Shown here in pieces: positions 16,813 through 36,177 of a stretch of DNA of 64,000 nucleotides. The DNA is taken from the NCBI RefSeq assembly GCF_963675165.1, contig NC_087380.1:3835803-3899802 (forward strand), in the 5' to 3' direction. Below the pieces are notes generated by a model. That model was given only the letters and a program-made list of their open reading frames with translations. It was not told the origin of the DNA and ran no database searches. The first letter of the stretch is position 1, and each line of letters starts with the position of its first letter. This DNA is from Halichondria panicea. Its lineage: Eukaryota > Porifera > Demospongiae > Suberitida > Halichondriidae. A program made the position numbers and the translations under genes.

Positions 16813-17238
16813 GTAAGCATCTACTTATCGTGTATACGAAATGTCAACAGCGTATACTAACTGCAATACAGTGTTTGCTAAATAATAGATAGCATGCAGC
16901 TCGCCCTTGGGCAATAAATACATTCCATACATACATTCCATACACACAACGAGAGGATTAATTCTCGGGCTATAATTATGTGTTTTATATAATGATGACC
17001 CTGTTCCAATTTAAACCAAAAAATACAAGGGTTGCATATATTATACGCTTGTTACCTTGACAACATGATAATTATAAGTACGTTTCACAAGTGATGATAG
17101 TATGATGTTAGTAAAACATGCCGAAAGGTCTCACAAAACATGGAGTTGATCACCACTTCATATAGACAATAGCTCTTGTTATAATTACTCTATACTATTG
17201 CACATACACTCTATGAATACACGTACCCACACATACAG

Positions 17239-19806: not shown

Positions 19807-21897
19807 ATGGCCACAGGAAAAGCACTAAAGAAACTCAAAAATCACCCTACTCACAAGACAAAGCCAGCACAAGAGCTAGAACAGCTTGCTATTGAGCTAA
19901 TCACACCAGCAAAGATTCGAGAGAGATTTGCCCACTTACTTCAAGCTGAAGGAATTTTGGGAGAACTTTTGGAAGATGACAACGATGGAGAACCGCTACA
20001 CACTCTAGAATTTGAAGCACAGCACCAGAAAATCAAGCACGAAACTTCAAAAGCATGCCACCTCTCAGTCAAGATATCACTGCAAAAGCTGCAGATTACA
20101 CTACCGTTTGTTCACACATTTGCAGAAAAACTCAAGTTTGAATACGGTGCTCTACACACTGCTGTAGTTGTTGGTAATGTTGTCATAGAGTGGGGGAGGG
20201 AGGAGCTTGTTGAGCCTCGTATCGATCCTAACTTTGTGTCAGAGTTCCAAGCGAATATAGGAGACCTTGGGGAGTGGCACGAAATGGGAGGGAGGTTTCA
20301 AGCGGAGATGAGCTTGGCGAACAGGCAAGGAGATACTGTGAAACAGCTGGGAATTGTTTTCGATGCAATTGACGAGAAATCGAAACTGATAGACAAGTTG
20401 GTTGGTGTGATAGTGGAATACAATCGTAATAAAAACTATGGTGTGCTTAACTGCAACTGTCAAGATTTTGCACGAGAAGCACTTGCTGCTTTAGGCATAA
20501 AGAAACCAATTGAATTTACAGGCAAGCTCCAAGAGCGATTCGAGCAGCTAAAGAAAGGAAATAGAAAAGTGCCAACTGAGTTAAAGTCTCACCAAAACCT
20601 TGACGCATACGTGGAAGAACACAAGAACGAATTGGGCTTACAAGACCTCGAATATCTTCAGTGCCTGTATTTTGCAGAGCATTTGCCAAAAATCGAGAAA
20701 TCTGGCAATTATGAAACCTGGGTGTGTGGAATGTCCACTTGCAAAAGTGGTGAGCTAGACAAGCTAATTCGAGAACACAGTCTTGCAAATAGCCAAACCA
20801 CACCCCCCATACACCCACACAATCAAAGACACCCTACAGGCAATCAATTCTTACACAGAGCCGAGCAGAGTGCTGCAAATAGTCAAGCCACATCACCCAT
20901 ACACCCACACAATCGAAGACTCTCTACAGGGACAAGGAAAACACGAACAAGTGAAGCGATTAGAGATTCAACTATAGCTGCATCAGCTGCATCAGCAGCA
21001 ACAAATGAAGGCACTAGGAAACAATGTCCCACCCCTGACTGTGAATTCTATGGAGAAGAAGAAACATTCTTTTACTGTTCGAAATGCTTTGAAGTCAAAA
21101 ATACACCAAAGTGTGATCACTGCGAGAATTTCGGGAATCCTGAATGCAATGGGCTGTGTAATGGTTGTTTTATGGAAAAAACAAAGTCTGAATCATTACG
21201 TAAAACATCTATCCAAACATATGACAGTGCTATACCACACCCACTGTCAACTGAAGCTCCTCCACCAGACACTAAGAAGTGTTCTGAATGCAATTCTTAC
21301 TTCGCTAATGAGGATTATCATGGTCTCTGCCATGGCTGCCTAATGTTCAAAACTAAAACTGAAACTGAAATAGCTATGAGTACCCACACTGTTGTACCAA
21401 ACCAGCCTATACAAAGTTCTCCTGTGTATTCTAAACAGAATCAAGGTCACCGGTCAAGAACACCTTATGCACCTTTACATGAAAAATGTCAAAATCCGGG
21501 CTGTAAGAATATTAAAACGGAAACTGGATATTGTGACATTTGCAACTATTCCAGTCCACTACCACCGACAAAAAGTACTAGTACCAGCTACAATACTGAA
21601 ACAGAAACTATACTACAAAGCAGGTGCTTTTTATGCACTGGGGAAAAGGTAACGGACAGGAATGAAGTGTGCACGTACCACACCTATCAGACACAGAAGT
21701 TGTTAGAGCAAATGAGCATTCATGATCCACCATCCCAAGCCAATACAACAACTGTAGCACCACAAGCACACGCATACTCATCAGAAGTAGGAAGGGAATA
21801 TTCACAAACACAGCAAAACATCTGGATACCACAATCAGAATCTGATAGAGGATACACAAACTATAGAGGTGTACCACAGCCTCGCTCAAACCACTAG
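19807..21897 (+). CDS. H/NCQ thiol-enzyme-like domain fused to five A20-type zinc fingers, 696 aa
   Basis: Single exon, ATG at 19807. Residues 1-320 are the family core: YGALHTAVVVGNVVIEWG (His117), CNCQDFAREALAALGI (Cys218), HQNLDAYV, LQCLYFAEH, CGMSTC. A linker of about 1.6 units of a 30-residue repeat (AEQSAANSQATSPIHPHN) follows, then five Cys clusters: CPTPDC-x11-CSKC, CDHC-x11-CNGC, CSEC-x12-CHGC, CQNPGC-x9-CDIC and CFLC-x11-CTYH. The first two fit the A20 zinc-finger spacing Cx2-4Cx11CxxC. A20 fingers bind ubiquitin or have E3 activity, so a role in ubiquitin or NF-kB-type signalling is inferred. It converges with the minus gene at 22670. The paralog at 33688 has six linker repeats. 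Confidence 0.82.
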   Translation: MATGKALKKLKNHPTHKTKPAQELEQLAIELITPAKIRERFAHLLQAEGILGELLEDDNDGEPLHTLEFEAQHQKIKHETSKACHLSVKISLQKLQITLPFVHTFAEKLKFEYGALHTAVVVGNVVIEWGREELVEPRIDPNFVSEFQANIGDLGEWHEMGGRFQAEMSLANRQGDTVKQLGIVFDAIDEKSKLIDKLVGVIVEYNRNKNYGVLNCNCQDFAREALAALGIKKPIEFTGKLQERFEQLKKGNRKVPTELKSHQNLDAYVEEHKNELGLQDLEYLQCLYFAEHLPKIEKSGNYETWVCGMSTCKSGELDKLIREHSLANSQTTPPIHPHNQRHPTGNQFLHRAEQSAANSQATSPIHPHNRRLSTGTRKTRTSEAIRDSTIAASAASAATNEGTRKQCPTPDCEFYGEEETFFYCSKCFEVKNTPKCDHCENFGNPECNGLCNGCFMEKTKSESLRKTSIQTYDSAIPHPLSTEAPPPDTKKCSECNSYFANEDYHGLCHGCLMFKTKTETEIAMSTHTVVPNQPIQSSPVYSKQNQGHRSRTPYAPLHEKCQNPGCKNIKTETGYCDICNYSSPLPPTKSTSTSYNTETETILQSRCFLCTGEKVTDRNEVCTYHTYQTQKLLEQMSIHDPPSQANTTTVAPQAHAYSSEVGREYSQTQQNIWIPQSESDRGYTNYRGVPQPRSNH
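20785..20931 (+). repeat. Linker minisatellite, 90-bp unit, about 1.6 copies
   Basis: In-frame units of 30 codons (NQFLHRAEQSAANSQA...) with a partial copy at 20785-20841 and a full one at 20842-20931. The same unit is present six times in the paralog at 34666-35205. Confidence 0.85.
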
Positions 21898-22140
21898 TGT
21901 AGTTAAATACTACACACACGGGCCATACATACGACACAATTACAACACAAGAAGCTACAATGGAGTATAGACACCTGTGTCACTCCAGGGTGTTTGTTTA
22001 AAGGTTACCAAGAAAAACATTGTTAGAGAACAATCACTCGGGAGTGAAAGCACCTGACTACTTACCATTTGTGTGAATCATTTTTTACCATTGAAGAGTT
22101 TTGTGTGTAAATACTAAATGGGCTGAAGAATACTCATTAT

Positions 22141-22500
22141 TATGCCTCGGTGCGCATGCATGCGCAAGCGAGGTAATACGGTATGTGTGTGTAGACTACT
22201 ACAGCATCAATGAAGTGCAAATTAGAGGCTTCTAGTTGAATTTTAATTTGTGGATTTGCAAAATAATACTTCATTCTCTGCATTAATCGGTTTTATGGTC
22301 GATCATTACCCACTCTTTGAGTTTCCCCGTGATTCTGGACACGCAGTAAACAAAATGTTCATCATGATAATTAAACTAGTAGCTTATGTTATGTAGCTTT
22401 TGCACCTCCACCGAGGCATCCGCACCAGCGGTGCTTTCATTATGAAAGTAATGGTCACACATTGACATTGGAGTACTAATAGTATTCATTAGTGTAAACA
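22141..22500. repeat. Interspersed repeat with a gcgcatgc palindrome
   Basis: Starts around gcctcggtgcgcatgcatgc followed by gcaagcgaggtaatacggta, then atcaatgaagtgcaa and ttgtggatttgcaaaataa blocks. The same blocks occur at 2945-3280, inverted at about 11880-12160, and at 36479-36800. Confidence 0.6.
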
Positions 22501-22669
22501 GACAAAGGTATTCCCACAAGGACACAAAACTAGCCTAAGACAAAGGTATTATTGTGTGTATTCAGTGTCACAAAAATGAGGTATTAAGCATGACATGTAA
22601 AAAGCAAACAAAAATAATAGTCTAAAGTATTATAATTAAGTGTTCTCTTTACATATCAACAGCTGTAAT

Positions 22670-23746
22670 TTAAACACCAGGATGAGCGACCATATTCAAA
22701 CGACAGCCGGTAACATGGCAACCTGTATTATCACCATGGAACTGCGAGTAGACCAACTGTAGATACTCCAAGCTTTCGGGGTCCAGCTTGTCCAACCATT
22801 CCTGACTCTTTTCCCCAATGAAAATATCGAGATCTTCATGTTTAGAAAAAATGTCTGGAATCTCACCCGATTTTCTGACTCTAAGTTGCTGCATGCGTTC
22901 ACTTTCTTCGACCTTAATGGACACTTTATTGGAAATGCCTAAAGCCTTGAGTGCATCAATAACAAAGGTCTGGCAGTTGCGGGAGAAAACATCATAGTAA
23001 TATGTCCTGTTGTATTGTGAAATCACTTCGGCTAGTCTTTGAAACACTTTACGCTTCTCGCCGGTTCGATAGAACAAGTGCTTCATCTCATCTTCAATTG
23101 GTAGCAACCGTGGCTCCAATTCAAGTGCAGCTGTTGCTTCAGCATTGTGAGGAGAAAGAGCAGTGATGTCACGTTCATCAGAGTTAAGAGATGATTCATT
23201 TTGTTCGGACTCCCAATACGGAACCACCAAGTTCTCTATGCCCCATTCCAGCACGACGTTACCAACAGTCAGGGAGACATGCTTTGCACCGTAGATAAAC
23301 TCCTTATGTTTGAAAATGTCGGTAACAGTTTCAAGCAGGCGTTGAGCTTTTCGATTTGATCTCAGGTCACGAACGGTTATCTTCAGAGGGATGAGAGCAA
23401 CGTCAATAGATCTGCGCTTTTGCCGAGATTTCGCTTTTACTACTTCGGTAGGATTCACAAACTCACCATCCGGGTTTTCATCCAGCTCTGCCAACTCTTC
23501 GAGAAGTGTTTCTTCCACAAGATGGCTGAAACTTGTATTGAGTATTGTATCAACATTTGTTAAACTCTTGACTTCGTCCTTCAACTCTGGTCCCCCTAGG
23601 TGTCGGTATCGTTCAAGATTTCTCAATTTTTCCTCAACATCAAGTTCTAGTTTTGCAGAAGCTTTCTTAGCACTAGCTTGGGATGAGCCACTTAGTTTGC
23701 TAACTGCACTGGAAGACTTCACAAATGTTTTGCTAAAAGAACTCAT
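22670..23746 (-). CDS. H/NCQ family member, 358 aa
   Basis: Single exon, ATG at 23746 (MSSFSKTFVKSSS). The Ser/Lys/Ala-rich N-terminus is shared with the other minus-strand members. Core: EKLRNLERYRHLGGPEL, FSHLVEETL, VALIPLKITVRDL, YGAKHVSLTVGNVVLEWG (His156), YNRTYYYDVFSRNCQTF (Cys258), DALKALGI, HEDLDIFI, LQLVYSQFH and CHVTGC. Predicted thiol enzyme with both catalytic residues kept. It is the counterpart of 37014-38087 in the second duplication unit; the two are nearly identical. Confidence 0.8.
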   Translation of the reverse strand: MSSFSKTFVKSSSAVSKLSGSSQASAKKASAKLELDVEEKLRNLERYRHLGGPELKDEVKSLTNVDTILNTSFSHLVEETLLEELAELDENPDGEFVNPTEVVKAKSRQKRRSIDVALIPLKITVRDLRSNRKAQRLLETVTDIFKHKEFIYGAKHVSLTVGNVVLEWGIENLVVPYWESEQNESSLNSDERDITALSPHNAEATAALELEPRLLPIEDEMKHLFYRTGEKRKVFQRLAEVISQYNRTYYYDVFSRNCQTFVIDALKALGISNKVSIKVEESERMQQLRVRKSGEIPDIFSKHEDLDIFIGEKSQEWLDKLDPESLEYLQLVYSQFHGDNTGCHVTGCRLNMVAHPGV

Positions 23747-24059
23747 GTCTATAGAGAGCTATACCTTGCAAACAAACACTTGTTAAAAGGTTGCTTACTA
23801 AAATGCTGACACATGATCATGAATACTCGATCCTACCAACCACACGTGACTGAACTGTCTGTCACATACCAACGAATGTAATTATACGAGGATGCACAAA
23901 CAAAGGACAAAATAAGAAGTGATAAGTTTCAAAAATCACAAATGATGGTCTTATGACAAAATCAATCGTTTCTGAGACAGCTAGTTCAGACAGTACAACC
24001 AAGCGACAGTTTGATACAGGGTGTACAGTATTTTCACCATGATGTGATCAATACGGATA

Positions 24060-24800
24060 CTATTTAAGGATATCTGAATGCAAATGTGATGGCTGTTTTA
24101 TGGGGGAGGAGCCTAAATCGCAGCAAGCAGTAACTCTTACAAATTTACTGCACAAGTAATTGTCGCACGTGATCATCAATTAGTGACCTTTTGACCCTGT
24201 GCAATTCCTACTTTGCTAACAAGGATTATCATCAAAATTGAAATTGAAACTGAAACCAAAATAGCTACTCAGTACCCACACTGTTGTACCAAACCAGCCT
24301 ACACATAGTTCTCCTGTGTATTCTAAACAGAATTAAGGTCACCCGTTAAGAACACCCTATACACCTTTACATGAAAAAATTAATGCCAAAATCTGGGCTG
24401 TACGAATTTTAAAACTGAATATTATGACATTTGCAACTATTTCAGTCCACCACACCTGACACAAAGTACTAGTACCAGTTACAGTATTGAAACAGAAACC
24501 ATACTATAAAGCAGGTGCTTTTTATGCACTGGGGAAAGGTAACGGACAGGAATGAAGTGTGCACCTATCACACGCATAAATTACTAACACAGATAGAGCA
24601 AATGAGCATCCACCATCCCAAGCCAACTGTAGCACCATCAGTACACTCAAGATACACATACTCATCAGAAGTATATAGGGAGAGGAAATTCACAAACACA
24701 ACCAAAGCCACCATGGAGACATCTGCATACCACAATCAGAATCTGATAGAGAATACACAAACTATAGAGGTGTACCACAGCCTCCCTCAAGCCACTAGTG
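24060..24800 (+). pseudogene. Decayed 3' remnant of an A20-finger gene
   Basis: Plus-strand sequence resembles the 3' part of the 19807 gene: ctactttgctaacaaggatta (finger 3), gcaggtgctttttatgcactg (finger 5), GKVTDRNEVCTYHTH and a tail like YSSEV. It has many frame breaks and no domain core. The same remnant recurs at about 38400-39110, so it decayed before the segmental duplication. Confidence 0.75.
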
Positions 24801-25261
24801 TAAGTTGGGCACACATGCACAACATTCACCAAAACAAACGTAACACTAAGTTCACACACACTAGGCATTGTGCCTATTTTTAAAAGCCCACACATTACAA
24901 GAAAAAAATACCTAAGGAATGAAAAGTACCTGACTATGCATATAATTATACCATTGCTGACTAATCGTTATGAATATTTGTTATGAAAGTAGTTATCACA
25001 ATAACATTGGAATAATTATAGCACCTGGGCAAGACAAAGGTGTTCCCCAACTAGGGCATGAACACAGGGATTAACTGTATTCAGTCAAATATCACCACAA
25101 AGTTCAGGCATTGAGCAAATACACAGACCAGTAATTATAATAGTCAAACATGAACAACAACAACAACAATAATTATGTTAATAAATCCACTCAGTGTCCC
25201 TCTAAAAATTAACTGTGATATTTTGTTCCAAAGACAAAATTAGTCAATTTACTATGGAACA

Positions 25262-26320
25262 TCAAGGAGTGATCATAGCCAAGCGACAGTCGATGACATG
25301 ACAACCTGCATTGTCACCACCATGGAACTGGGAATAGACCAGTTTTAGATACTCCAAGCTTTCAGGATCCAGCTTGTCCAACCATTTTTGACTCCTTTCC
25401 CAGATGAAAATATCGAGATCTTCGTGTGTAGCAAAACTGTCAGGAATATCACCAGATTTTCTGAGTCTAAGATGTTGCATACGTTCAGTTTCTTCGACCT
25501 TAACGGGCACCTTATCAGAAATGCCTACAGCCTTGAGTGCATCGATCACAAAGGTCTGGCAATTGCGGGAGCGAACATCATAGTGATACGTCCTGTTGTA
25601 TTGTGAAACAACTTCAGCCAGTATTTGAAACATTTCACGCTTATCGCTGGTACGATAGAACAAGTGCTCCACTTCTTCATCAATTGGCAGCAACCGTGGC
25701 TCCACTTCAAGTGTTGCTGTTGCTTCAGCATTGTGAGGACTAAGAACAGTGATGTCACGTGCATCAGAGTTGAGAGATGATTCATTTCGTTCGAACTCCC
25801 AATACGGAACCACCAAGCTCTCTTTACCCCATTCCAGCACTACGTCACCAACAGTCAGAGAGACATGCTTGGCACCATAGTTAAGCTTGAAAATGTCGGC
25901 TAAGGATTCAAGCACACGTTGAGCTTTTCGATTTGATTTTATGTCACGTACGACTATTTTCAGAGGAATACAAGCAACGTTAATTAACCTTTTTCTTTGC
26001 CGGCTCTTTGCTTCTCCTACTTCAATAGAATTCACCAATTCACCATCCTGGTTTTTATTCAGTGTTTCCACCTGCTGGATAAGCACCTCTTCCACAAGAT
26101 GGCTGAATTTCTCAAGTATTTTGTCCACATTCGTTAATTTTACAACTTCCACTCGTAATTCTTCTCCTCCTAGGTCTCGATACAGTTTATGCTTTCTCAA
26201 CTTTTTCTCAACTTCAAATTCTGATGATTTTTCAGAATCTTGCTTCTTAGCAGCACTAGCTTTAGATAAGCCACTAACTGCACTGACAGACTTGGCAAAT
26301 GCTTTGCTAAAGGAGCTCAT
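25262..26320 (-). CDS. H/NCQ family member, ~352 aa
   Basis: Start chosen at 26320 (MSSFSKAFAKSVS), which matches the paralogs; an in-frame ATG at 26332 adds four residues. Core: EKKLRKHKLYRDLGGEEL, FSHLVEEVL, YGAKHVSLTVGDVVLEWG (His152), YNRTYHYDVRSRNCQTF (Cys254), DALKAVGI, HEDLDIFI, LKLVYSQFH and CHVIDC. Both catalytic residues are kept. In the second duplication unit its counterpart is cut down to a 3' piece at about 39650-39972. Confidence 0.8.
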   Translation of the reverse strand: MSSFSKAFAKSVSAVSGLSKASAAKKQDSEKSSEFEVEKKLRKHKLYRDLGGEELRVEVVKLTNVDKILEKFSHLVEEVLIQQVETLNKNQDGELVNSIEVGEAKSRQRKRLINVACIPLKIVVRDIKSNRKAQRVLESLADIFKLNYGAKHVSLTVGDVVLEWGKESLVVPYWEFERNESSLNSDARDITVLSPHNAEATATLEVEPRLLPIDEEVEHLFYRTSDKREMFQILAEVVSQYNRTYHYDVRSRNCQTFVIDALKAVGISDKVPVKVEETERMQHLRLRKSGDIPDSFATHEDLDIFIWERSQKWLDKLDPESLEYLKLVYSQFHGGDNAGCHVIDCRLAMITP

Positions 26321-26473
26321 AATTATAAGCAAACAGGTTTCAATTACTTTACACTACTCCCAAATTGCTGATACAATGCATATATGAATATGAATACTTT
26401 AGGGTATCCACCAACCACGGCCACATGCACTTACTGAATGGTCACATTCTACCAATGAATATAATGATAATTA

Positions 26474-26628
26474 TACTGTATAACGTGAAACTTTCGAGGC
26501 ACTTATTTCCGTGGAATAGCCTCTAAAAACGTCAGACGTTGTGCTTCGTGGACCTAATTTTCGTGGGATTGCTAACCCACGAAAACAGCGCAACATTAAT
26601 CCCCTCGAAAATTCCGCGCTATATGGTA
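26474..26628. mobile_element. TACCGTA-family MITE
   Basis: Left end TACTGTATAACGTGAAACTT, right end CGCGCTATATGGTA, with the internal ttttcgtgggatt / acccacgaaaa pair. 155 bp. It lies upstream of the gene ending at 26320. Confidence 0.7.
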
Positions 26629-26784
26629 AGACACAAGTGCACTTTGACAGTTGAACAAACAATTTAGAACGACTGCCCTTATTGCACAACACCATAAATA
26701 TTATTCTTACACAGGAAGTAAACAAAACCACAGCTAAACAATAACAATTATTAGCACATTATCAGTTTCTGATCAAATGATACA

Positions 26785-28270
26785 CTAACCTGAGGCCGTG
26801 CCGCGGCCAGCGGGTTAATAGTAGTCCTAGTTCATTGGTTTGTTTGTGATCTCTGAGTCTACTCACCTGGATGCCATATAGCACTGCGTTTATAGCATAG
26901 ATAGCCTCCACACAAGTTATTAGTTATTAGTTGTCGAATAAAACGAGCAAAATCCAACTTGCACGTTGGCTGCATGGTTAGCTAGCTACACGCGGCCTTT
27001 CATCGAGGTACGTATTTATAGCTGAAGTGATCCCGTACCAGGAACAATAGCACAGGGTCATTAAAGTAGAAAGCTATAATTATATAGAATTCGTTTGTTG
27101 CTTTGCTATATCTTGTCAACAGCCAAGGGTTATAGCACTTCAGTGCTCTAGTTATATATAACTAGAGCACTGAAGTGCTATAACCCTCGGCTGTTATAAC
27201 TAGAGCACTGAAGTGCTATAACCCTCGGCTGTTATATACAAAAATCAAACAAGCAAAACACACACACACAACAGATTATACTCGTTTTTTGATGACAGTG
27301 CAACAAAACAAACTTAACATTATGTTCACACTACTCACACGGTCCATACGTACGACAATTATAGCAATAGATTATGAGGTAATCAATAGACACGTGCACC
27401 ATGCACACGTTTAAAGGCTATCAAGAATCGGATCACATTGTTATGAGAACAATTTAATACTGGAATGAGAGTACCTGACTACTTACCATTAGTGTGAATA
27501 CTATGTACCAAGTATGTACGTAAACTTAATGGACCGACTAATAACCCGAGGCGCATGGGTGGCCACGGGTCATAGTAGTCGTCTGGTCTGTGTGTGGGTG
27601 TGTAATTCTGAGTTTGCTCACCTGGATGCTATGGTGTTTCGTTTGAAGCCTTCACACAACAAGTTATCAGTTTAGTAAATTGATGTTAAAGATTCGTTGT
27701 CAAATAAAAGCGAGATAAGAACTTTACCTTGCACGCTGGCTATATAGAGCTAGCTAGCTAAACACGGCTATACTTACAAAGGTATTAAGGGCACAGAACT
27801 AAATGAAGCAAACTGTATGCACTTAGTCAAGTATCAGCACACATTGATCGTAATATACACAGAGCTATACAAAGCAAACTGTGTGCACTCAGTCAAGTAT
27901 CAGCACACATTGATCGTAATATACAAAGAGCTATACAAAGCAAACTGTATGGTGTGCACTTAGTCAAGTATCAGCACACATTGATCGTAATATACACAGA
28001 GCTATACAAAGCAAACTGTGTGCACTCAGTCAAGTATCAGCACACATTGATCGTAATAATTATACACAGAACTATATAAAGCAAACTGTGTTCACTCAGT
28101 CAAATATCAGCACACATTATCATAATATACACAGAATTAAAACATCATCATGTAATAAAAAGCAAACATAATTATGTAGACAACAACAAGTTAATAAATC
28201 CACTGAGTCTCAGTGTTCTTCTAAACTTAAAAAGTACATAGTAGATCTGTTCTTATTCCAAGGACACTAT
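26785..28270. repeat. Repeat block between two minus-strand family genes
   Basis: It contains inverted partial copies of the CTAGAGCACT/CTCGGGTAA repeat (about 26790-27235 and 27545-27780). Short inverted and direct copies of actagagcactgaagtgcta lie at 27140-27235. A 66-70-bp tandem array (aaagcaaactgtgtgcactc ... acacattgatcgtaat) spans about 27790-28137 with about 5 copies. No gene. Confidence 0.75.
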
Positions 28271-29347
28271 TCATACTGAAGGAGTGATCATAAACAAACG
28301 GCAGTCAGTAACATGGCAACCTGTATTATTATCACCGTGGAACTGCGAGTAGACTAACTGTAAATACTCCAAGCTTTCAGGGTCCAGCTCGTCCAACCAT
28401 CTTTGACTCTTTTCAGAGATGAAAAAATCGAGATCTTCATGTGTAGCAAAACTGTCTGGAATCTCACTCAATTTTTTGACTCTAAGTTGCTGCATACGTT
28501 CACTTTCTTCGACCTTAATGGGTACCTTATCGGAAATGCCTACAGCCTTGAGTGCATCAATAACAAATGCCTGGCAGTTGCGTTTGAGAACATCGTAGTG
28601 ATGCATTGTGTTGTATTGTGAGATAACTTCGGCCAGTCTTTGAAACACTTCCAGCTTCTCGCTGGTACGATAAAACAAGTGCTCCACCTCATCTTCAATC
28701 GGTAGCAACCATGGCTCCACTTCAGGCGCAGCTGTTGCTTCAGCATTGTGAGTACTAAGAGAAGTGATGTCACGAGCATCAGACTTGACAGATCTTTCTT
28801 TTTGTTCGAGCTCCCAATACGGAACCACCAAGCTCTCTTTACCCCATTCCAGCACTACGTCACCAACAGTCAGAGAGACATGCTTGGCACCGTATTCTCC
28901 AATTTTGAAAATGTCAGCAAAGGTTTCAAGCAGACGTTGAGCTTTTCGATTTGATCTCAGGTCACGAACGGTTATCTTCAGAGGAATGCGAGCAACATTA
29001 ACAGATCTACATCTCTGTTGGGTCTGTGCTTCTCCTACTTCGGTAGAATTCAACCACTCAACATCTGAATTTTCATCCAGCTCTTTCACCTGTTCAATAA
29101 GTACCTCTTGCACAAGATGGCTGAAATTCTCAAGTATATTGTCAACTTTAGTTAATCTTTCAACTTCCTCTTGTAATTCTTTTCCTCCTAGGTTTCGGTA
29201 CTTTTTATGCCTTCTCAACTTTTTCTCGACTTGAAGTGCCCAACATTTCTCTGTAGTGGGCTTCTTAGCAGCACTAGCTTTGGATGAGCCACTGCCACTA
29301 GCTGCACTGGCAGACTTGCCAAATACTTCGCAAATAGACTTCATCAA
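28271..29347 (-). CDS. H/NCQ family member, 358 aa
   Basis: ATG at 29347 (MMKSICEVFGKSASAASG). Core: EKKLRRHKKYRNLGGKEL, FSHLVQEVL, YGAKHVSLTVGDVVLEWG (His156), YNTMHHYDVLKRNCQAF (Cys258), DALKAVGI, HEDLDFFI, LQLVYSQFH and CHVTDC. Both catalytic residues are present. It pairs with 40317-41375 in the second unit. Confidence 0.8.
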   Translation of the reverse strand: MMKSICEVFGKSASAASGSGSSKASAAKKPTTEKCWALQVEKKLRRHKKYRNLGGKELQEEVERLTKVDNILENFSHLVQEVLIEQVKELDENSDVEWLNSTEVGEAQTQQRCRSVNVARIPLKITVRDLRSNRKAQRLLETFADIFKIGEYGAKHVSLTVGDVVLEWGKESLVVPYWELEQKERSVKSDARDITSLSTHNAEATAAPEVEPWLLPIEDEVEHLFYRTSEKLEVFQRLAEVISQYNTMHHYDVLKRNCQAFVIDALKAVGISDKVPIKVEESERMQQLRVKKLSEIPDSFATHEDLDFFISEKSQRWLDELDPESLEYLQLVYSQFHGDNNTGCHVTDCRLFMITPSV

Positions 29348-29575
29348 ATCTTGTAAGCAAACAGGTTTCTACAATAAACAATTACAAATAGCTATTACCC
29401 AAAATGCTGATAATGCAAATACTATAGGGTATCCACCCAACCACACACTCTACCAGACGATAAATTATACATTGTGTACATGTAGGTTAAGACACAAGCA
29501 AAGTCAAAAATGATTAAGAAAGAGCTAAATTTATTATCAAACAAGCAAAACACTCGCACACAAAATATTTATGAT

Positions 29576-30645
29576 AACATCGATCGTTGCTGCAATAATT
29601 CGGACAGTACAGTCTGCCCTAAGACCCCAAATGTTGTAAGACAGGAAGTGCTACAAGTTGCCTCATGAATATATTAATGAGAACAGTTTTTCTTTGTTTC
29701 TGATAAAAATAAAGGTTTTTAGAGCTATCTAAGTTGAAATATGTAACATGAAGACAGTTTAACATACGATAAACACTTTAAATTATGAATTTGGGTCAAA
29801 TTAGCATGAAGTTGTGTAAAACGATTGCAGAATGTTTGAATTTTTGAGCAAGCTGTTCACCATCGACGTAGCAAGCTAAAAATTGAATTTTTGCGCAAGC
29901 TGTTCACACTATCTCAATCTAGTCCAAACTTGCTGAGTCAATACATTCCATATTGAACTAATTTATCTCTTAGTAACAGGTTCTAGTTCAGTAAATGGTC
30001 TGTGTTATGAGCTTTGGAAATTCAGAAAAAATCACCCTTCACTACTGGCAGAGTTGTTGGGTGTCTTCATTATGAATATCATTAAAACAATGTTTTTGTG
30101 ATGTCATCCTTATGAATACCATTAAAAAACTTGTGGTATGTATTTCCTGTCTTGTCTTGCAAATACTGAAAAGTTGGGGGTCTTTGGGCAGACTGGTACA
30201 AACAAGCGACAGTTTGGTACAGGGCATACAGTCTCACCATGAAACTGCTTGTACACAAGTTGCAGATACTCAAAGCTGTCGGTTTGAAGGTGGGCATTTT
30301 GCTTTTACTATTAATACGTAAACATCCACGTCCTCGTGTCGAGTGAAACTGTCGGGAACGTTGTCAGATTTCTTCTCTTTCAACTGCAGCATACGGTCAC
30401 TTATAGGAGGTGAAGAGCAAGTCTTTGCCGAAATCCCCAGAGCTTCTAACACATCACACACAAACTTCTGAGAGTTGCGTTTAGGTGAGCTGTAGTAATA
30501 AGCTTTGTTGTATTTTGAGATCACCTTGGCTACCCCTCCGAATATTGGACTGTCTTCTGAGACACTGTGCAGTAAAAGAAATACTCAATCGTTTCAACAA
30601 TAGAAGTATTAAACCCATCCAGTGCTTCATATTCGTCTAGTGACT
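29576..30645 (-). pseudogene. Broken H/NCQ family copy (counterpart of 41622-42581)
   Basis: The 3' end is at about 29576-29609 and the rest at 30196-30645; a MITE (29610-30195) separates them. The recognisable middle reads ISKYNKAYYYSSPKRNSQKF, DVLEALGISAKTC and DNVPDSFTRHEDVDVYV. Frame breaks are present and the N-terminal half is missing. Like its counterpart it has Ser instead of Cys in the NCQ motif (NSQKF), so the substitution is older than the duplication. Confidence 0.82.
29610..30195. mobile_element. MITE inserted in a family copy, with a clear 3-bp target duplication
   Basis: Ends CAGTCTGCCC and GGGCAGACTG are inverted repeats, extended by aagaccccaa / ttgggggtctt. Flanks read ...cggacaGTA | element | GTAcaaacaagc; the uninterrupted paralog at about 41660 reads cggacagtacaaacaagc. 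This shows a GTA target-site duplication. 586 bp, no transposase ORF. Confidence 0.88.
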
Positions 30646-31740
30646 AGTTTTGTTGTGATGGCTTCTACTTCTCTTCTGCTCTTGCTCAAGCTCTCTCCAG
30701 TGTTGGTTTTGTCTTCTTTTGTACTGTGGTAGAGTGGTGGGTGTTTTTCTGTCAGTACCGATAGGCTCTGGCAAGTCTATACTTGCTTCCAGACGCTTGT
30801 TTGATGCCATCTCGATAAGATCAGTGTTCCTCGTTAGCCTCCTTTGCAGCCTCTCCTTTTTCTGTTCTTTGTCACAGAAGAGAAAATTGGAGGAACAAAG
30901 AAAGAAAGAAAGAAGCGACAAAGAAAAAGAAGAGCCTGCCTTGCTAAGTCGCGTGATCCCCATACTGACGTAGACAAATTTTAACGAGCGTGGGCGAGAG
31001 AAAACCTCAATAACTGTCCTCCCACACAGTACTGGAGCGCATTTACCAGGAACATAATCTGTTATGAACAGTACAGTACAGTAGAGTCAGCCTTCGTGAG
31101 ACCTTTAGTCACTAGAGGAAGTATGAAAGACTAGAGTAGAGTAGACTATACTGCTGTAATAATTATATCTACTAGTCAAGTGGGTCTGTTCTGAACTCAG
31201 GAAAAAAAACTGAGCTAAATTTAGATATAAATCTAGATCTTTAGTCTTTACTATAGGTAAGCCCTCGTCTATGATGTCTCCACGCTTGATTCTGGCTTAC
31301 AATGTACGATGCTAACAGCTTTTATGTTAGAGTTTGCAATGCGTAGGCATGCTGTAGCTATTTGCTCTGTCAGGCTCCGCCCAGCTAGTGATTGCCCACG
31401 TTCATTTTCACTCGTCTACCACTCGTTTACCGTCACGCGACTTAAAGGCAGGCTCTCCTTTTTCTTTGTCTCTTCCTTCTTTCTTTCTTTGTTCCTCCAA
31501 TTAGTCCCGTATTTTAACTATTGACAAAGAACAGAAAAAGGAGAGGCTGCGAAGGAGGCTAGCTCCTTGTATGAGCCTAGAGTTGTGATGGCGATTTCTC
31601 TCTCTTGACACTTGTTTAATCAACCACGTGGGTGACCACAGTACAAAAGGTTAATTGATCACTAAGAGTGTTACTAACAAATTTACTATTGAATCCACCC
31701 ACGCGCAAACAGTGGTTACCAGGCCCTCTAGTGAGAGGGG
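30646..31740. other. Inter-unit spacer with an inverted repeat
   Basis: A minus-strand open frame (about 30637-30963, Lys/Arg-rich, TDRKTPTTLPQYKRRQNQHW) has no homology I recognise. Part of it (agcctctcctttttctgttc) recurs inverted at about 31520-31550, with a matching ctttctttctttgttcctcc block at 31475-31498, so it is probably repeat DNA. No supported gene. Confidence 0.5.
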
Positions 31741-31823
31741 CTGGGATCGAGGCTACACAGGAATAGAAGTCAGCACACAGCAGTCTTCCGCCCACACAAT
31801 TTTATTGACCAGCAATACTTAAA

Positions 31824-31834
31824 GGGAAAGTCCC
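31824..31834 (+). promoter_or_regulatory. kappaB-like site upstream of the broken 31928 copy
   Basis: GGGAAAGTCCC, same as at 19709 and 33608. It lies 33 bp before a TATAAAAG box (31868-31875) and 93 bp before the ATG of a broken copy. Confidence 0.5.
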
Positions 31835-31927
31835 AGGTTGTTTACCTCACCACACCTACTTATTACTTATAAAAGTGCTTACAAGCCAGCTAACTTTAAT
31901 CTATGTTTAGCTACAATATAATACAGC

Positions 31928-32870
31928 ATGGCAGCTACAAGAAAGGTACTGAAGAAACTCAAAAATCACCCTACCCACAAGACAAAGCCAGTACAAGAGC
32001 TAAAACAGCTTGCTATTGAGCTAATCATACCATGTACCAGCGAAGATTCGAGAGAGATTTGCCCACTTATTTCAAGCTAAAGGAATTTTGGGAGAACTTT
32101 TGGAAGACGACCACGACGGAGAAGCCCTACACACACTAGAATTTGAAGCACATCACCAGAAAATCAAGCACGAAACTTCAAAAGCATGCCACCTCGCAGT
32201 CAAGATATCACTGCAAAAGCTGCAGATTACACTACCGTTTGTTCACACATTTGCAGAAAAACTCAAGTTTGAATACGGTGGTCTACACACTGCTGTAGTT
32301 GTTGGTGATGTTGTCATAGAGTAGGGTGTGGAGGAGCTTGTTGAGCCTCGTAGCGTTCCTAACTTTGTGTCGAAATGGTAGGGAGGTTTCAAGCGAAGAT
32401 GAGCTTGGCAAACAGGCAAGGAGATACTGTGCAAAAGAAATCGAAGCTGATCTTTAAGAAACCAATTGAATTCACAGGCAAGCTCCAAGAGCGATTCGAG
32501 CAGCTAAAGAAAAGAAATAGAAAAGTGCCAACTGAGTTAAAGTCTCACCAAAACCTTGACGCAGAACGAATTAGGCTAACAAGACCTCGAATATCTTCAG
32601 TGCCTGTATTTTGTAGAGCATTTACCAAAAATCGTGAAATCTGGCAATCATGAAACCTGGGTATGTAGAATGCCCACTTGCAAAAGTGGTGAGCTAGACA
32701 AGCTAATTCGAGAACACAGCCTTCTGTTCAAACAGTTCCTACCCGGAGCCGAGCAGAGTGCTGAAGGCGATGAAAGCGAAGTGTGCAGGTTTCATAAAGA
32801 CAAAGTAGATGCTATCGATGGACCAATTAAGAGTATACTGCCGATTAGACAATGTATAATTTATATGAAA
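31928..32870 (+). pseudogene. Chimeric broken copy: A20-finger gene 5' part joined to the 3' end of an 18401-type gene
   Basis: The first part matches the 19807 and 33688 genes from promoter and ATG onward. It has a short insertion near 32031 that shifts frame, a stop where the paralogs read VVIEWG (TAG near 32322) and an internal deletion removing the NCQ region around 32440-32455. After KQFLPGAEQSAE the sequence switches to GDESEVCRF and AIDGPIK, the C-terminus of the 18401 gene, and its 3' flank (gtataatttatatgaa) follows. All zinc fingers are absent. The join indicates unequal crossing-over or gene conversion. Confidence 0.85.
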
Positions 32871-32899
32871 TACGTTGTTATTATAAACACTATCATGTG

Positions 32900-33480
32900 T
32901 TTGCTTAGCCTCGTTGTCTCTAGCTAGGCCGCCAACTATAGACCTGGTGTTGGTGTGTATCTGGGCGTGGTTAGGAACCAAAAAACAAGAAGCAGAGAGA
33001 TTTGCAAGAACAACACACCTGTCGACAAGGGCCGGCAGTGTTGGTCCTACCTATACTAGTTTGTAGTCCACCTACTAGTTTGTAGTCCATCACAAAGGGC
33101 AGTGAGTGAAAGCAAAAGACTTGTCATACCATGTTAAAAACCATGGCAAAGACGTTTCTTCCTTCTGACAAGGGCTGGGCCTGTTCTGCAATGAGAGTGG
33201 GGCCTTCTTGTGAAGCAGACACTGTATATGTTAATCTGAACTTGCCATAGCTAGCTAGCTAGCTAGATAATCTATGGGCTAGATTTTAGTTACTTCAGAG
33301 CACACATGGAGCTAAATTACGGTTATACGGGGAATATGACAAGAAACAAAGTGTGAAGAATCTCTGCTTTGGTTTCCGGTTCTTGCCACGCCCAGATACA
33401 ATCAATACCAGGCTATATTTTTCAACTTCGTTCTCAAAAAAAATCAGCCTGGGACCGAGGCTAGTGTTTGCTGTAATCAA
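32900..33480. other. Insertion between the chimeric copy and the second A20-finger gene
   Basis: This stretch interrupts sequence that is continuous at about 19575-19600, between the 18401 gene's 3' flank and the A20-finger promoter. Its ends (tagcctcgttg / gaccgaggcta) hint at an inverted-repeat element. No coding sequence recognised. Confidence 0.5.
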
Positions 33481-33607
33481 ACACAAACATAGTAGATTTT
33501 ACATTATGATTATCTGCTATCTAAGCAACAGTGAGTACGTGCACCACAGGAATAGAAGTCAGCAGCAGCAGTCTTCCGCCCACACAATTTAATTGCAAAT
33601 ACTTAAA

Positions 33608-33618
33608 GGGAAAGTCCC
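33608..33618 (+). promoter_or_regulatory. kappaB-like site upstream of the 33688 gene
   Basis: GGGAAAGTCCC, 24 bp before TATAAAAG and 70 bp before the ATG. Contains the reverse complement of GGGACTTTCC. Confidence 0.55.
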
Positions 33619-33642
33619 AGGTTGTTTATCACCACACCTACT

Positions 33643-33650
33643 TATAAAAG
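33643..33650 (+). promoter_or_regulatory. TATA box of the 33688 gene
   Basis: TATAAAAG, 38 bp before the ATG, in the context cctacttataaaagtgccta, which is conserved at 19745 and 31868. Confidence 0.6.
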
Positions 33651-33687
33651 TGCCTACAACTATAACCTTGTTTAGCTACAATACAGC

Positions 33688-36177
33688 ATGGCAGCAACAG
33701 GAAAAGCACTGAGGAAACTCAAAAATCACCCTACTCACAAGACAAAGCCAGCACAAGAGCTAGAACAGCTTGCTATTGAGCTAATCACACCAGCGAAGAT
33801 TCGAGAGAGATTTGCCCACTTACTTCGAGCTGAAGGAATTTTAGTAGAACTTCTTGAAGACGACAACGACCTAAACACTCGAGAACTTAAAGCACAGCAC
33901 CAGAATATTAAGCACGAAACTTCAAAAGCATGCCACCTCTCAGTCAAGATATCACTGCAAAAGCTGCAGCTTACACTACCGTTTGTTCACACATTTGCAG
34001 AAAAACTCAAGTTTGAATACGGTGCTCTACACACTGCTGTAGTTGTTGGTGATGTTGTCATAGAGTGGGGTGTGGAGGAGCTCGTCGAGCCTCGTAGCGT
34101 TCCTAACTTTGTGTCAGATTTCCAAGCGAATGTAGGAGATCAAGGGGAGTGGCACGAAATGGAAGGGAGGTTTCAAGCGGAGATGAGCTTGGCGAACAGG
34201 CAAGAAAATACTGTGCAAAAGCTGGAAATTGTTTTCGAAGCTATTGAAGAGAAATCGAAGCTGATAGACAAGCTGGTTGATGTGATAGTGGAATACAATC
34301 GTAATAAAAACTACGGTGTGCTTAACTGCAACTGTCAAGATTTTGCACGAGAAGCACTTGCTGCTTTAGGCATAAAGAAACCAATTGAATTCACAGGCAA
34401 GCTCCAAGAGCGATTCGAGCAGTTAAAGAAAGGAAATAGAAAAGTGCCAACTGAGTTAAAGTCTCACCAAAACCTTGACGCATACGTGGAAGAACACAAG
34501 AACGAATTGGGCTTACAAGACCTCGAATATCTTCAGTGCCTGTATTTTGCAGAGCATTTGCCAAAAATCGAGAAATCTGGCAATTATGAAACCTGGGTGT
34601 GTGGAATGCCAACTTGCAAAAGTGGTGAGCTAGACAAGCTAATTCGTGAACACAGTCTTCCGTTCAATCAGTTCCTACCCGGAGCCGAGCAAAGTGCTGC
34701 AAATAGTCAAGCTACATCCCCCATACACCCACACAATCGAAGACACCCTACAGTCAATCAGTTCCTACCCGGAGCCGAGCAGAGTGCTACAAATAGCCAA
34801 GCCACATCCCCCATACACCCACACAATCAAAGACACCCTACAGGCAATCAGTTCTTACACAGAGCCGAGCAAAGTGCTGCAAATAGCCAAGCCACATCCT
34901 CCATACACCCACACAATCAAAGACACCCTACAGGCAATCAGTTCTTACACAGAGCCGAGCAAAGTGCTGCAAATAGTCAAGCCACATCCCCCATACACCC
35001 ACACAATCAAAGACACCCTACAGGCAATCAGTTCTTACACAGAGCCGAGCAGAGTGCTGCAAATAGTCAAGCCACATCACCCATACACCCACACAATCGA
35101 AGACTCCCTACAAGTAATCAGTTCTTACACAGAGCCGAGCAGAGTGCTGCAAATAGTCAAGCCACATCACCCATACACCCACACAATCGAAGACACCCTA
35201 CAGGGACAAGGAAAACAGTAACACCACGAACAAGTGAAGCGATTAGAGATTCAACTATAGCTGCATCAGCTGCATCAGCAGCAACAAATGAAGGCACTAG
35301 GAAACAATGTCCCACCCCTGACTGTGAATTCTATGGAGAAAAAGAAACATACTTTTACTGTTCGAAATGCTTTGAAGTCAAAAATACACCAAAGTGTGAT
35401 CACTGCGAGAATTTCGGGAATCCTGAATGCAATGGGCTGTGTAATGGTTGTTTTATGGGGAAAAAAGAGTTTGAATCATTACTTAAAACATCTATGGCTA
35501 TCCAACCACATGACAGTGCTATACCAAACCCACTGTCAACTGAAGCTCCTCCACCAGACACTAAGAAGTGCTCTGAATGCAATACTTACTTTGCTAACGA
35601 GGATTATCATGGTCTCTGCCATGGCTGCCTAATGTTCAAAACTGAAACTGAAACTGAAATAGATACGAGTACTCACACTGTTGTACCAAACCAGCCTATA
35701 CAAAGTTCTCCTGTGTATTCTAAACAGAATCAAGGTCACTGGTCAAGAACACCCTATGCACCTTTACATGAAAAATGCCAAAATCCGGGCTGTAAGAATA
35801 TTAAAACTGAAACTGGATATTGTGACATTTGCAACTATTCCAGTCCACTACCACCCACAAAAAGTACTAGTACCAGCTACAGTACTGAAACAGAAACCAT
35901 ACTACAAAGCAGGTGCTTTTTATGCACTGGGGAAAAGGTAACGGACAGGAATGAAGTGTGCACCTATCACATCTATCACACACAGAAGTTGTTAGAGCAA
36001 ATGAGCATTCATGATCCACCATTCCAAGCCAATACAACAACTGTAGCACCACAAGCACACGCATACTCATCAGAAGTAGGAAGGGAAAATTCACAAACAC
36101 AGCAAAGCCACCAATCAAAATGTGATAGAGGATACACAAACTATAGAGGTATACCACAGCCTCCCTCAAACCACTAG
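33688..36177 (+). CDS. H/NCQ thiol-enzyme-like domain fused to 30-aa repeats and five A20-type zinc fingers, 829 aa
   Basis: Single exon, ATG at 33688. Core at residues 1-320 has His115 (YGALHTAVVVGDVVIEWG) and Cys216 (CNCQDFAREALAALGI). Residues 327-506 are six 30-residue repeats (NQFLHRAEQSAANSQATSPI...). Five zinc clusters start at about residues 541 (CPTPDC-x11-CSKC), 570 (CDHC-x11-CNGC), 628 (CSEC-x12-CHGC), 697 (CQNPGC-x9-CDIC) and 743 (CFLC-x11-CTYH). Fingers 1, 2 and 5 have exact 11-residue A20 spacing; the last ligand of finger 5 is His. A20 fingers are known from TNFAIP3, ZNF216 and Rabex-5 as ubiquitin readers, so a ubiquitin-linked role is inferred. Near-identical to 19807-21897 apart from repeat number. 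Confidence 0.85.
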   Translation: MAATGKALRKLKNHPTHKTKPAQELEQLAIELITPAKIRERFAHLLRAEGILVELLEDDNDLNTRELKAQHQNIKHETSKACHLSVKISLQKLQLTLPFVHTFAEKLKFEYGALHTAVVVGDVVIEWGVEELVEPRSVPNFVSDFQANVGDQGEWHEMEGRFQAEMSLANRQENTVQKLEIVFEAIEEKSKLIDKLVDVIVEYNRNKNYGVLNCNCQDFAREALAALGIKKPIEFTGKLQERFEQLKKGNRKVPTELKSHQNLDAYVEEHKNELGLQDLEYLQCLYFAEHLPKIEKSGNYETWVCGMPTCKSGELDKLIREHSLPFNQFLPGAEQSAANSQATSPIHPHNRRHPTVNQFLPGAEQSATNSQATSPIHPHNQRHPTGNQFLHRAEQSAANSQATSSIHPHNQRHPTGNQFLHRAEQSAANSQATSPIHPHNQRHPTGNQFLHRAEQSAANSQATSPIHPHNRRLPTSNQFLHRAEQSAANSQATSPIHPHNRRHPTGTRKTVTPRTSEAIRDSTIAASAASAATNEGTRKQCPTPDCEFYGEKETYFYCSKCFEVKNTPKCDHCENFGNPECNGLCNGCFMGKKEFESLLKTSMAIQPHDSAIPNPLSTEAPPPDTKKCSECNTYFANEDYHGLCHGCLMFKTETETEIDTSTHTVVPNQPIQSSPVYSKQNQGHWSRTPYAPLHEKCQNPGCKNIKTETGYCDICNYSSPLPPTKSTSTSYSTETETILQSRCFLCTGEKVTDRNEVCTYHIYHTQKLLEQMSIHDPPFQANTTTVAPQAHAYSSEVGRENSQTQQSHQSKCDRGYTNYRGIPQPPSNH
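34666..35205 (+). repeat. In-frame 90-bp minisatellite, 6 copies
   Basis: Six consecutive 90-bp units inside the 33688 gene, each encoding 30 residues. Units 3-6 start NQFLHRAEQ and units 1-2 start NQFLPGAEQ. Because 90 is divisible by three, another plus frame also stays open across the array; that second frame is a shadow. Confidence 0.95.

What the first reader, a model, noticed from the sequence alone, without database searches (positions are those of the whole stretch)
19807..36177. Possible new protein class: papain-like H/NCQ domain fused to five A20-type zinc fingers
Two intact genes (19807-21897 and 33688-36177) join a domain with ordered His (YGALH) and Cys (NCQ) residues to a row of Cx2-4Cx11CxxC fingers. 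In known A20 proteins (TNFAIP3) the fingers accompany an OTU cysteine protease. Here a different thiol-enzyme-like fold appears in the same arrangement, which suggests an independently assembled ubiquitin-editing or ubiquitin-reading enzyme. Motifs are seen directly; enzymatic and ubiquitin roles are inferred.
Basis: partly seen in the sequence, partly recalled or inferred. Interest (0 to 1): 0.88.

Follow-up and report, generated by a model that had tools for sequence, protein, structure and literature searches.

The report
A20 zinc fingers on another enzyme
In an unnamed animal-like genome, the row of zinc fingers that belongs to the ubiquitin-editing protein A20 sits on a different cysteine-enzyme-like domain instead of A20's usual one, which suggests that the cutting part was exchanged while the presumed ubiquitin-reading part was kept.

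Summary
In detail: two intact genes (19807-21897; 33688-36177) join a core with ordered His, Tyr and Cys to five A20-type fingers. The core of these two genes passes no Pfam cut-off; one neighbouring paralogue just passes Lnb_N. Over the family the commonest match is PPPDE (Peptidase_C97), then RTE1 and Lnb_N, centred on the NCQ motif. The core profile aligns His-to-His and Cys-to-Cys with 11 LRAT proteins of the same genome, above all 100 column shuffles. It is most likely a new permuted papain-like (NlpC/P60-clan) thiol-enzyme family; the fold was not modelled (tool switched off). 'Independently assembled' is wrong for the fingers: the genome also has a true OTU-A20 protein with ten fingers, and the fused proteins' fingers follow its order, so a ready-made A20 array was coupled to another papain-like enzyme. 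Fused cores form one clade, in five sequence lineages; the two copies show dN/dS 0.36-0.38. All 15 genome matches to one core member lie in this window. Likeliest role: ubiquitin-chain reader carrying a Cys isopeptidase; binding and catalysis are inferred. Ten paper searches listed no description of the fusion.

The parts
19807..21897 (+). Fusion gene 1 (P0001, 696 aa): papain-like core, linker, five A20-type fingers
   Evidence: Intact ORF; fingers
20155..20157 (+). Putative catalytic His of gene 1 (residue 117, EYGALH)
   Evidence: family conservation
20458..20460 (+). Putative catalytic Cys of gene 1 (residue 218, NCQ; Tyr 211 seven residues before)
21025..21087 (+). Gene 1 finger 1; zf-A20 22.5 bits
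   Evidence: OTU-A20 finger 5 assignment made on the gene 2 copy
21112..21168 (+). Gene 1 finger 2 (FGNPECNGLCNGCF, ZF7-like)
   Evidence: PDB match made with the gene 2 copy
21280..21339 (+). Gene 1 finger 3 (OTU-A20 finger 6 type)
   Evidence: assignment made on the gene 2 copy
21487..21543 (+). Gene 1 finger 4 (OTU-A20 finger 8 type)
   Evidence: assignment made on the gene 2 copy
21625..21681 (+). Gene 1 finger 5 (CCCH; OTU-A20 finger 9 type)
   Evidence: assignment made on the gene 2 copy
33688..36177 (+). Fusion gene 2 (P0002, 829 aa): same architecture
   Evidence: Intact ORF
34030..34032 (+). Putative catalytic His115 of gene 2
   Evidence: 28 of 32 rows His
34312..34314 (+). Putative active-site Tyr209 of gene 2 (Cys minus 7, as Tyr101/Cys108 in PPPDE1)
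   Evidence: 31 of 32 rows Tyr; PMC3142127 passages
34333..34335 (+). Putative catalytic Cys216 of gene 2
   Evidence: 27 of 32 rows Cys
34665..35204 (+). 90-bp repeat, 6.0 copies, coding the low-complexity linker of gene 2
35308..35370 (+). Gene 2 finger 1; zf-A20 22.7 bits; OTU-A20 finger 5 type
35395..35451 (+). Gene 2 finger 2; best PDB match TNFAIP3 ZF7 (3vuw, E 8.4e-5)
35569..35628 (+). Gene 2 finger 3; OTU-A20 finger 6 type
   Evidence: no A20 finger matched in the PDB by sequence
35776..35832 (+). Gene 2 finger 4; OTU-A20 finger 8 type
35914..35970 (+). Gene 2 finger 5 (CCCH); OTU-A20 finger 9 type
15631..16860 (+). Core-family paralogue without fingers (409 aa)
17248..18273 (+). Core-like paralogue that lacks both His and Cys (pseudo-enzyme); possibly a second exon of the preceding gene
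   Evidence: splice-like ends; joined form P0009
18401..19522 (+). Core-family paralogue (373 aa) with the strongest PPPDE score among the window ORFs scanned whole
   Evidence: PF05903 E 3.2e-5, 24.3 bits, cut-off 29.2
22670..23746 (-). Core-family paralogue (358 aa); Lnb_N 22.5 bits, just over its cut-off of 22.2
25262..26332 (-). Core-family paralogue
28271..29347 (-). Core-family paralogue
37014..38087 (-). Core-family paralogue, near-copy of 22670-23746 (tandem duplication, spacing about 14 kb)
40317..41429 (-). Core-family paralogue
41622..42581 (-). Core-family paralogue with Ser in place of the Cys
42844..43977 (-). Core-family paralogue
46468..47583 (-). Core-family paralogue
48778..49905 (-). 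Core-family paralogue
32025..32927 (+). Broken third copy of the fusion core; the Cys-bearing stretch is missing and the 3' end resembles the 18401-19522 gene
24491..24883 (+). Remnant of a fusion-gene 3' end (finger 5 region)

Best explanation
These are fused proteins in which the finger array of an OTU-A20 protein was joined, probably once, to a circularly permuted papain-like (NlpC/P60-clan, PPPDE-like) thiol-enzyme domain from a separate family that is expanded in this cluster. Shown by sequence: the architecture, finger-by-finger collinearity with OTU-A20, one clade of fused cores, a His/Tyr/Cys trio in every fused protein examined, and a low dN/dS between the two copies. Inferred: the fingers bind polyubiquitin, finger 2 possibly like the Met1-chain reader ZF7 of TNFAIP3; and the core uses Cys216, with His115 as base and Tyr209 beside it, to cleave ubiquitin or a ubiquitin-like protein from proteins that the fingers hold. 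It would thus work like A20 with another catalytic engine. The confidence below is for the whole chain down to ubiquitin or ubiquitin-like isopeptidase action. For the parts, on my own judgement: architecture 0.95, permuted papain-like fold 0.85, active enzyme 0.65.
For: Fingers: P0002 532-771 vs own OTU-A20 at E 4e-25. Seven of P0005's twelve fingers were tested (the rest are near-copies) and match OTU-A20 fingers 1, 5, 6, 6, 8, 9, 10 in order; P0002's five match 5, 6 (by score; finger 1 by z), 6, 8, 9. Own OTU-A20's OTU domain matches OTUD7B and TNFAIP3 at E 6e-53 and 1.5e-51. Finger 2 matches TNFAIP3 ZF7 at E 8.4e-5. Core: PF05903 is hit by 18 of 32 members at E <= 0.1, best 2.1e-5, the commonest of 24 families. 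RTE1/TMEM222, DUF4105 and LRAT are papain-like in PMC10318531 (passages); that Lnb_N is the former DUF4105 is recalled. hhalign to a profile of 11 own LRAT proteins: 28.9 against at most 23.5 in 100 column shuffles, His on His and Cys on Cys. Tyr at Cys-7 in 31 of 32, as PPPDE1 Tyr101/Cys108 (PMC3142127 passages). Trio present in 9 of 9 proteins of the fused type, one of them a truncated record without fingers. One clade of 8 rows, 95/94, 94% of 200 bootstrap trees. dN/dS 0.38 core, 0.36 fingers.
Against: No member reaches the PPPDE cut-off in my scans (best 24.8 of 29.2), while one paralogue does just pass Lnb_N, an acyltransferase family by its NCBIfam name (22.5 of 22.2). PDB searches with core profiles are not significant (best E 0.36 and 0.17, both a PPPDE-domain protein). 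hhalign probability to LRAT is only 31%, and the -glob setting and an untrimmed alignment gave no match. No fold was modelled. The strictest residues are not the catalytic ones: W127, P135, N204, F219, H260, E280 and C305 are 32 of 32 against 28 and 27 for His and Cys, so some members look inactive and the domain has another role too. Similarity to all these families is centred on the Cys stretch.
Confidence: 0.42

Rival explanations
1. The core is an active thiol enzyme but not a peptidase: an LRAT/PLAAT- or Lnb-like acyltransferase or lipase that the A20 fingers bring to ubiquitinated membranes or complexes.
For: One paralogue (22670-23746) passes the Lnb_N cut-off (22.5 of 22.2 bits), four of 32 members match Lnb_N and one LRAT at E <= 0.1; NCBIfam Lnb at E 0.022; PLAAT4 is in the PDB list at a non-significant E 1.6; hhalign to own LRAT profile aligns the catalytic residues. 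LRAT is expanded in this genome (24 matches).
Against: PPPDE, whose members are described as deubiquitinases or desumolyases (PMC10318531 passages), is matched by more members (18 of 32). Ubiquitin-reading fingers fit a protein substrate better (inference).
Confidence: 0.22
2. The fused protein is a decoy or scaffold for which catalysis does not matter: the fingers compete with OTU-A20 for ubiquitin chains and the core is a binding module.
For: The strictest conserved residues are not His/Cys, and one branch (17248-18273, P0017, P0020, P0021) lacks both; A20 itself is thought to act partly by ZnF7 binding of Met1 chains (PMC5135002 passages).
Against: All nine proteins of the fused type keep His, Tyr and Cys, while that other branch has lost them.
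Confidence: 0.22
3. The Pfam matches around NCQ are short-motif coincidences and the core has an unrelated fold.
For: Nearly all matches are below the cut-off and centre on the Cys stretch; PDB searches not significant; hhalign probability 31%.
Against: E-values of 9.7e-6 to 5.3e-5, each for a whole-library scan, in separate members and for families of one clan; His/Tyr/Cys order and spacing; hhalign beats 100 of 100 column shuffles and the reversed profile.
Confidence: 0.11
4. The fusion is an annotation or assembly artefact (two adjacent genes read as one, or a non-coding ORF).
For: No transcript evidence is available here; only ORFs were read.
Against: Uninterrupted 696- and 829-codon frames; the same join in proteins from other contigs, 46-63% identical to P0004; dN/dS below 0.4 on both sides of the linker.
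Confidence: 0.03

Closest known systems
TNFAIP3 / A20 (OTU domain plus seven A20 fingers)
   Same: N-terminal papain-superfamily-type domain followed by a row of A20-type fingers; finger block homologous to and collinear with the same genome's OTU-A20 protein
   Different: No OTU domain; His comes before Cys; five fingers instead of seven (human, PMC5135002 passages) or ten (own OTU-A20)
PPPDE / DeSI proteins (Pfam PF05903, MEROPS C97)
   Same: His before Cys, NC[QN]xF stretch, Tyr at Cys-7; commonest Pfam match of the family
   Different: Below the curated cut-off; about 330-residue core with a conserved C-terminal His/Cys set; fused to A20 fingers, whereas PPPDE-matching exons on C9 and C15 of the same genome are elsewhere
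LRAT / PLAAT family (PF04970)
   Same: Permuted NlpC/P60 clan; catalytic His and Cys align
   Different: One of 32 members matches the LRAT model, below cut-off; own LRAT genes form a separate expansion
Lnb_N / DUF4105 (PF13387, lipoprotein N-acyltransferase Lnb in NCBIfam)
   Same: Match over the Cys stretch; paralogue 22670-23746 just passes the cut-off
   Different: Four of 32 members match at E <= 0.1; the two fusion genes do not
Rabex-5 and ZFAND5/6 (A20 finger joined to VPS9 or AN1)
   Same: A20 finger on a non-OTU partner; own OTU-A20 finger 1 region matches Rabex-5 and ZFAND5 in the PDB
   Different: A single A20 finger and no thiol-enzyme partner (domain make-up recalled)

Membership tests
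TNFAIP3/A20 OTU deubiquitinases | OTU cysteine protease domain (PF02338) | tested here: not met
   No OTU match in P0001 or P0002; present in P0011 and own L033, L034 proteins
TNFAIP3/A20 OTU deubiquitinases | C-terminal row of A20-type fingers, collinear with an OTU-A20 protein | tested here: met
   compared with own OTU-A20 and P0011, not with the human sequence
zf-A20 (PF01754) | Score over the curated cut-off of 21.6 bits | tested here: inconclusive
   16.8 and 16.4 bits by hmmscan; 22.5 and 22.7 for finger 1 in the genome search; four of eight non-OTU relatives scanned are over it (P0004, P0005, P0006, P0008), two are under (P0003, P0007), two have no match (P0009, P0010, which have no fingers)
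zf-A20 (PF01754) | Cx2-4Cx9-13CxxC zinc ligands | tested here: met
   Four of five fingers; the fifth ends in His, as OTU-A20 finger 9 does
zf-A20 (PF01754) | Ubiquitin binding | not testable with these tools
   Only sequence likeness of finger 2 to TNFAIP3 ZF7
PPPDE / Peptidase_C97 (PF05903) | Score over the curated cut-off of 29.2 bits | tested here: not met
   Best 24.8 bits (P0016); the protein database's precomputed table does give P0016 PF05903
PPPDE / Peptidase_C97 (PF05903) | Permuted order His ... Cys with Tyr at Cys-7 | tested here: met
   reference residues from PMC3142127 passages
PPPDE / Peptidase_C97 (PF05903) | Permuted papain-like fold with adjacent His and Cys | not tested
LRAT (PF04970) | Score over the curated cut-off of 24.3 bits | tested here: not met
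   One of 32 members at E <= 0.1, 13.8 bits
Lnb_N (PF13387) | Score over the curated cut-off of 22.2 bits | tested here: inconclusive
   Not matched by P0001 or P0002; one paralogue, 22670-23746, at 22.5 bits, another, 25262-26332, at 18.0
NlpC/P60 permuted clan (superfamily level) | Profile likeness with catalytic residues aligned | tested here: met
   hhalign 28.9 vs at most 23.5 in 100 column shuffles, reversed 12.9; weak, 31% probability, and no match with two other settings

The most novel reading that the evidence does not exclude
A second class of ubiquitin-editing enzyme: the A20 finger array kept as a reader of (possibly Met1-linked) ubiquitin chains, while the OTU protease was replaced by a new permuted papain-like isopeptidase family, giving an A20 paralogue with different chain or modifier specificity that runs beside the true OTU-A20 in the same animal.
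Probability: 0.35. Interest if true: 0.85.

Novelty: new variant of a known kind. Interest (0 to 1): 0.62.

Why it matters
A20 is a central brake on NF-kB signalling, and how far its fingers work without its protease is an open question. A natural A20 with another enzyme in place of OTU is a ready experiment: it would show that the finger array is a module that can be moved, and which part of A20 function follows the fingers. The core is also a PPPDE-like family that the curated models used here do not clearly name.

Tried and rejected
hhalign against an untrimmed alignment of 12 own LRAT proteins gave no match; with 11 trimmed to the domain it gave 31%, and the -glob setting gave nothing; a shuffle control was then added. 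Of 14 LRAT loci taken from 24 matches, two had no NC motif in their longest frame and one divergent one was left out. A PPPDE profile for profile-profile comparison was not built, because own DeSI genes are split into exons. An HMM of the core, run on 1197 ORFs of loci L036-L050, gives outside the family a 141-aa frame on C14 with an NCQHF motif (E 0.0089, over 32 residues), the DeSI exon on C9 (E 0.13) and the first LRAT frame at E 1.8. A search for an OTU-A20-type last finger downstream of the two genes found none intact. The NCBIfam scan gave low-scoring hits far below their cut-offs, among them Lnb at E 0.022 and a FabI model at E 0.0065 that I take for chance. The organism could not be named from the tools; 'sponge' is my guess from memory, not tested. 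Tail-region dN/dS (53 codons) came out at 5.3 with dS 0.014, too few changes to use; other paralogue pairs with a usable dS gave 0.22 to 0.75. Rejected: pure motif chance for the fingers and the separate-genes artefact.
Full report
What was checked. The His (YGALH) and Cys (NCNCQ) lie in that order about 100 residues apart, and five zinc-ligand clusters follow in the C-terminal half. Shuffling each protein 2000 times never gave five clusters (mean 0.03). The window is one stretch of a 131.5-Mb genome in 39 contigs. Its content (OTU-A20, a TRAF-like protein, an LRAT expansion, split DeSI exons) is animal-like; I did not identify it further.

The fingers. hmmscan gives zf-A20 on two stretches per protein but below the curated cut-off (16.8 and 16.4 against 21.6 bits). 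Of eight non-OTU relatives scanned, P0004, P0005, P0006 and P0008 exceed it, P0003 and P0007 score under it, and P0009 and P0010, which have no fingers, do not match. In the genome search, which scores single fingers, finger 1 of each gene is just over the cut-off and finger 2 just under. Finger 2 matches TNFAIP3 ZF7 in the PDB (E 0.0025 with the whole protein; 8.4e-5 with a 67-residue piece). A review says that ZnF7 binds Met1 chains and that its distal-ubiquitin contacts are conserved among ZnF7 orthologues (PMC5135002 passages). I could not check contact residues: the primary paper is not held. A piece with finger 3 alone matched no A20 finger in the PDB.

Where the fingers come from. A search of the genome with P0011 (an OTU plus zf-A20 protein) finds a 1388-aa single-frame OTU-A20 gene on C16 (L033) and a 648-aa OTU protein with two fingers on C7 (L034). 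The C16 OTU domain matches OTUD7B and TNFAIP3 structures at E 6e-53 and 1.5e-51, and the protein carries ten finger-like clusters. P0002 532-771 aligns to its residues 895-1189 at E 4e-25 for the single comparison, linkers included. Finger against finger, with Cys fixed in the shuffles, P0002 fingers 1, 3, 4 and 5 pick OTU-A20 fingers 5, 6, 8 and 9 by both score and z. Finger 2 picks 6 by score and 1 by z, and in P0011 it picks 4, the equivalent of 6. P0005 has twelve fingers, several of them near-copies of a repeated unit; the seven tested pick 1, 5, 6, 6, 8, 9 and 10. So the array is one inherited block. On four concatenated fingers the seven fused proteins separate from the two OTU proteins at 99/98, in a tree of nine rows with some long branches.

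The core. P0002's core gives only E 0.034 to Peptidase_C97. Over 32 family members C97/PPPDE is the commonest match (18 of 32 at E <= 0.1, best 2.1e-5); leaving zf-A20 aside, RTE1 follows (9) and Lnb_N (4); LRAT one. With 20 members, half of them trimmed to the core, at E <= 0.01 the counts are 7, 4 and 3. No member passes the C97 cut-off of 29.2 in my scans; one paralogue, 22670-23746, just passes that of Lnb_N (22.5 of 22.2). C97, RTE1/TMEM222, DUF4105 and LRAT are placed among papain-like proteins in PMC10318531 (passages; that Lnb_N is the former DUF4105 is recalled). PDB searches with core profiles list a PPPDE-domain protein first, at a non-significant E of 0.36 and 0.17. An HMM of the core finds, outside the family, an NCQHF protein on C14 (E 0.0089), own DeSI exon (E 0.13) and the first LRAT frame at 1.8, among 1197 ORFs; the first two of these matches cover only the Cys stretch. 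hhalign of the core against 11 own LRAT proteins, trimmed, scores 28.9 with the catalytic residues on each other; 100 column shuffles reach at most 23.5 and the reversed profile 12.9, but the probability is 31% and two other set-ups gave nothing. That LRAT uses the first His of its HxGIY motif is recalled. In PPPDE1 the active residues are His38, Glu47, Tyr101 and Cys108 (PMC3142127 passages). Here a Tyr stands at the same seven residues before the Cys in 31 of 32 rows, His in 28 and Cys in 27.

An unexpected point. W127, P135, N204, F219, H260, E280 and C305 are invariant in 32 of 32 rows, and H290 and C310 stand in 31 of 32, more strictly than the catalytic pair, including a branch without His and Cys. 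H260, H290, C305 and C310 could form a structural zinc site (inference).

Family and cluster. All 15 matches (E <= 0.001) of the 18401-19522 protein in the genome lie on C4 inside this window, on both strands; the tool scores only the best candidates, 21 here. P0022, a distant relative from another source, also matches only this cluster (11 of 11 matches at E <= 1, the best 8e-5), and hhalign joins it to the family over 271 columns. The fused cores form one clade (8 rows, 95/94, 94% of 200 bootstrap trees); one of the eight, P0012, is a truncated record counted as fused because it is 99% identical to P0002, and P0006 was not in that tree. The next rows, P0013 and P0014, lack finger clusters (0 and 2 Cys after residue 330), if their records are complete. 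Fused proteins fall into five sequence lineages: the window's own with P0003 and P0012; P0004; P0007; P0005 with P0006; P0008. Some of these could be paralogues of one species, and P0003 may be an allele. The two window copies belong to a tandem duplication of about 14 kb spacing, differ in linker repeat number, and have dN/dS 0.38 in the core (324 codons) and 0.36 in the finger region (241 codons); the short tail is uninformative.

How it most likely works. The fingers read ubiquitin chains and the core cleaves ubiquitin or a ubiquitin-like protein; PPPDE members are described as deubiquitinases or desumolyases (PMC10318531 passages). Acyl transfer and a non-catalytic decoy are live rivals, the first because Lnb and LRAT are of the same clan, the second because the catalytic pair is lost in one branch.

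Novelty. Among the papers listed, which for the broad searches are only the first 15 to 20 of many, no title or abstract opening names a PPPDE-A20 fusion. I read passages of PMC10318531, PMC3142127, PMC5135002 and PMC1832185 only, and the library lacks most subscription journals. The parts are known kinds; the combination and the core family are, as far as I could see, not described.

Noticed in passing
L014:388-1641 (+), genome C16 near 2800379: A TRAF-like zinc-finger protein (zf-TRAF) ends in a near-copy of the last finger of the same genome's OTU-A20 protein, so an A20 finger sits on another signalling protein as well.
   Followed up: partly
window 15631-18273 (+): Two neighbouring core ORFs are separated by a stretch with splice-like ends (AAG|GTAAGC ... 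CAG|TGT); the relative P0009 has both as one 723-aa protein with an intact and a decayed core.
   Followed up: partly
window 32025-32927 (+): Broken chimeric copy: fusion-gene core lacking the Cys stretch, with a 3' end like the 18401-19522 gene; a sign of unequal recombination in the cluster.
   Followed up: partly
window 24491-24883 and about 38387 (+): Remnants of fusion-gene 3' ends with decayed fingers.
   Followed up: no
family alignment A3, residues H260, H290, C305, C310 of P0002: A C-terminal His/Cys set of the core is more conserved than the catalytic pair; possible structural zinc site.
   Followed up: no
genome C3 1.28-1.92 Mb, also C1, C13, C14: LRAT-type genes are expanded: 24 matches at E <= 1, most on C3.
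   Followed up: no
L042:1342-2166 (-) and L042:2653-3078 (-), genome C14 near 5034200: Two neighbouring NCQHF frames, the first with weak PPPDE likeness (21.4 bits); perhaps another papain-like group outside the cluster.
   Followed up: partly
window 6692-7333 (-) and 56536-57351 (+): Methyltransferase-like frames with similar sequence on either side of the cluster, the second interrupted by an in-frame stop.
   Followed up: no
window 34665-35204 (+): 90-bp coding repeat in the linker; by motif 5 units in P0002, 2 in P0001, 1 in P0003.
   Followed up: partly
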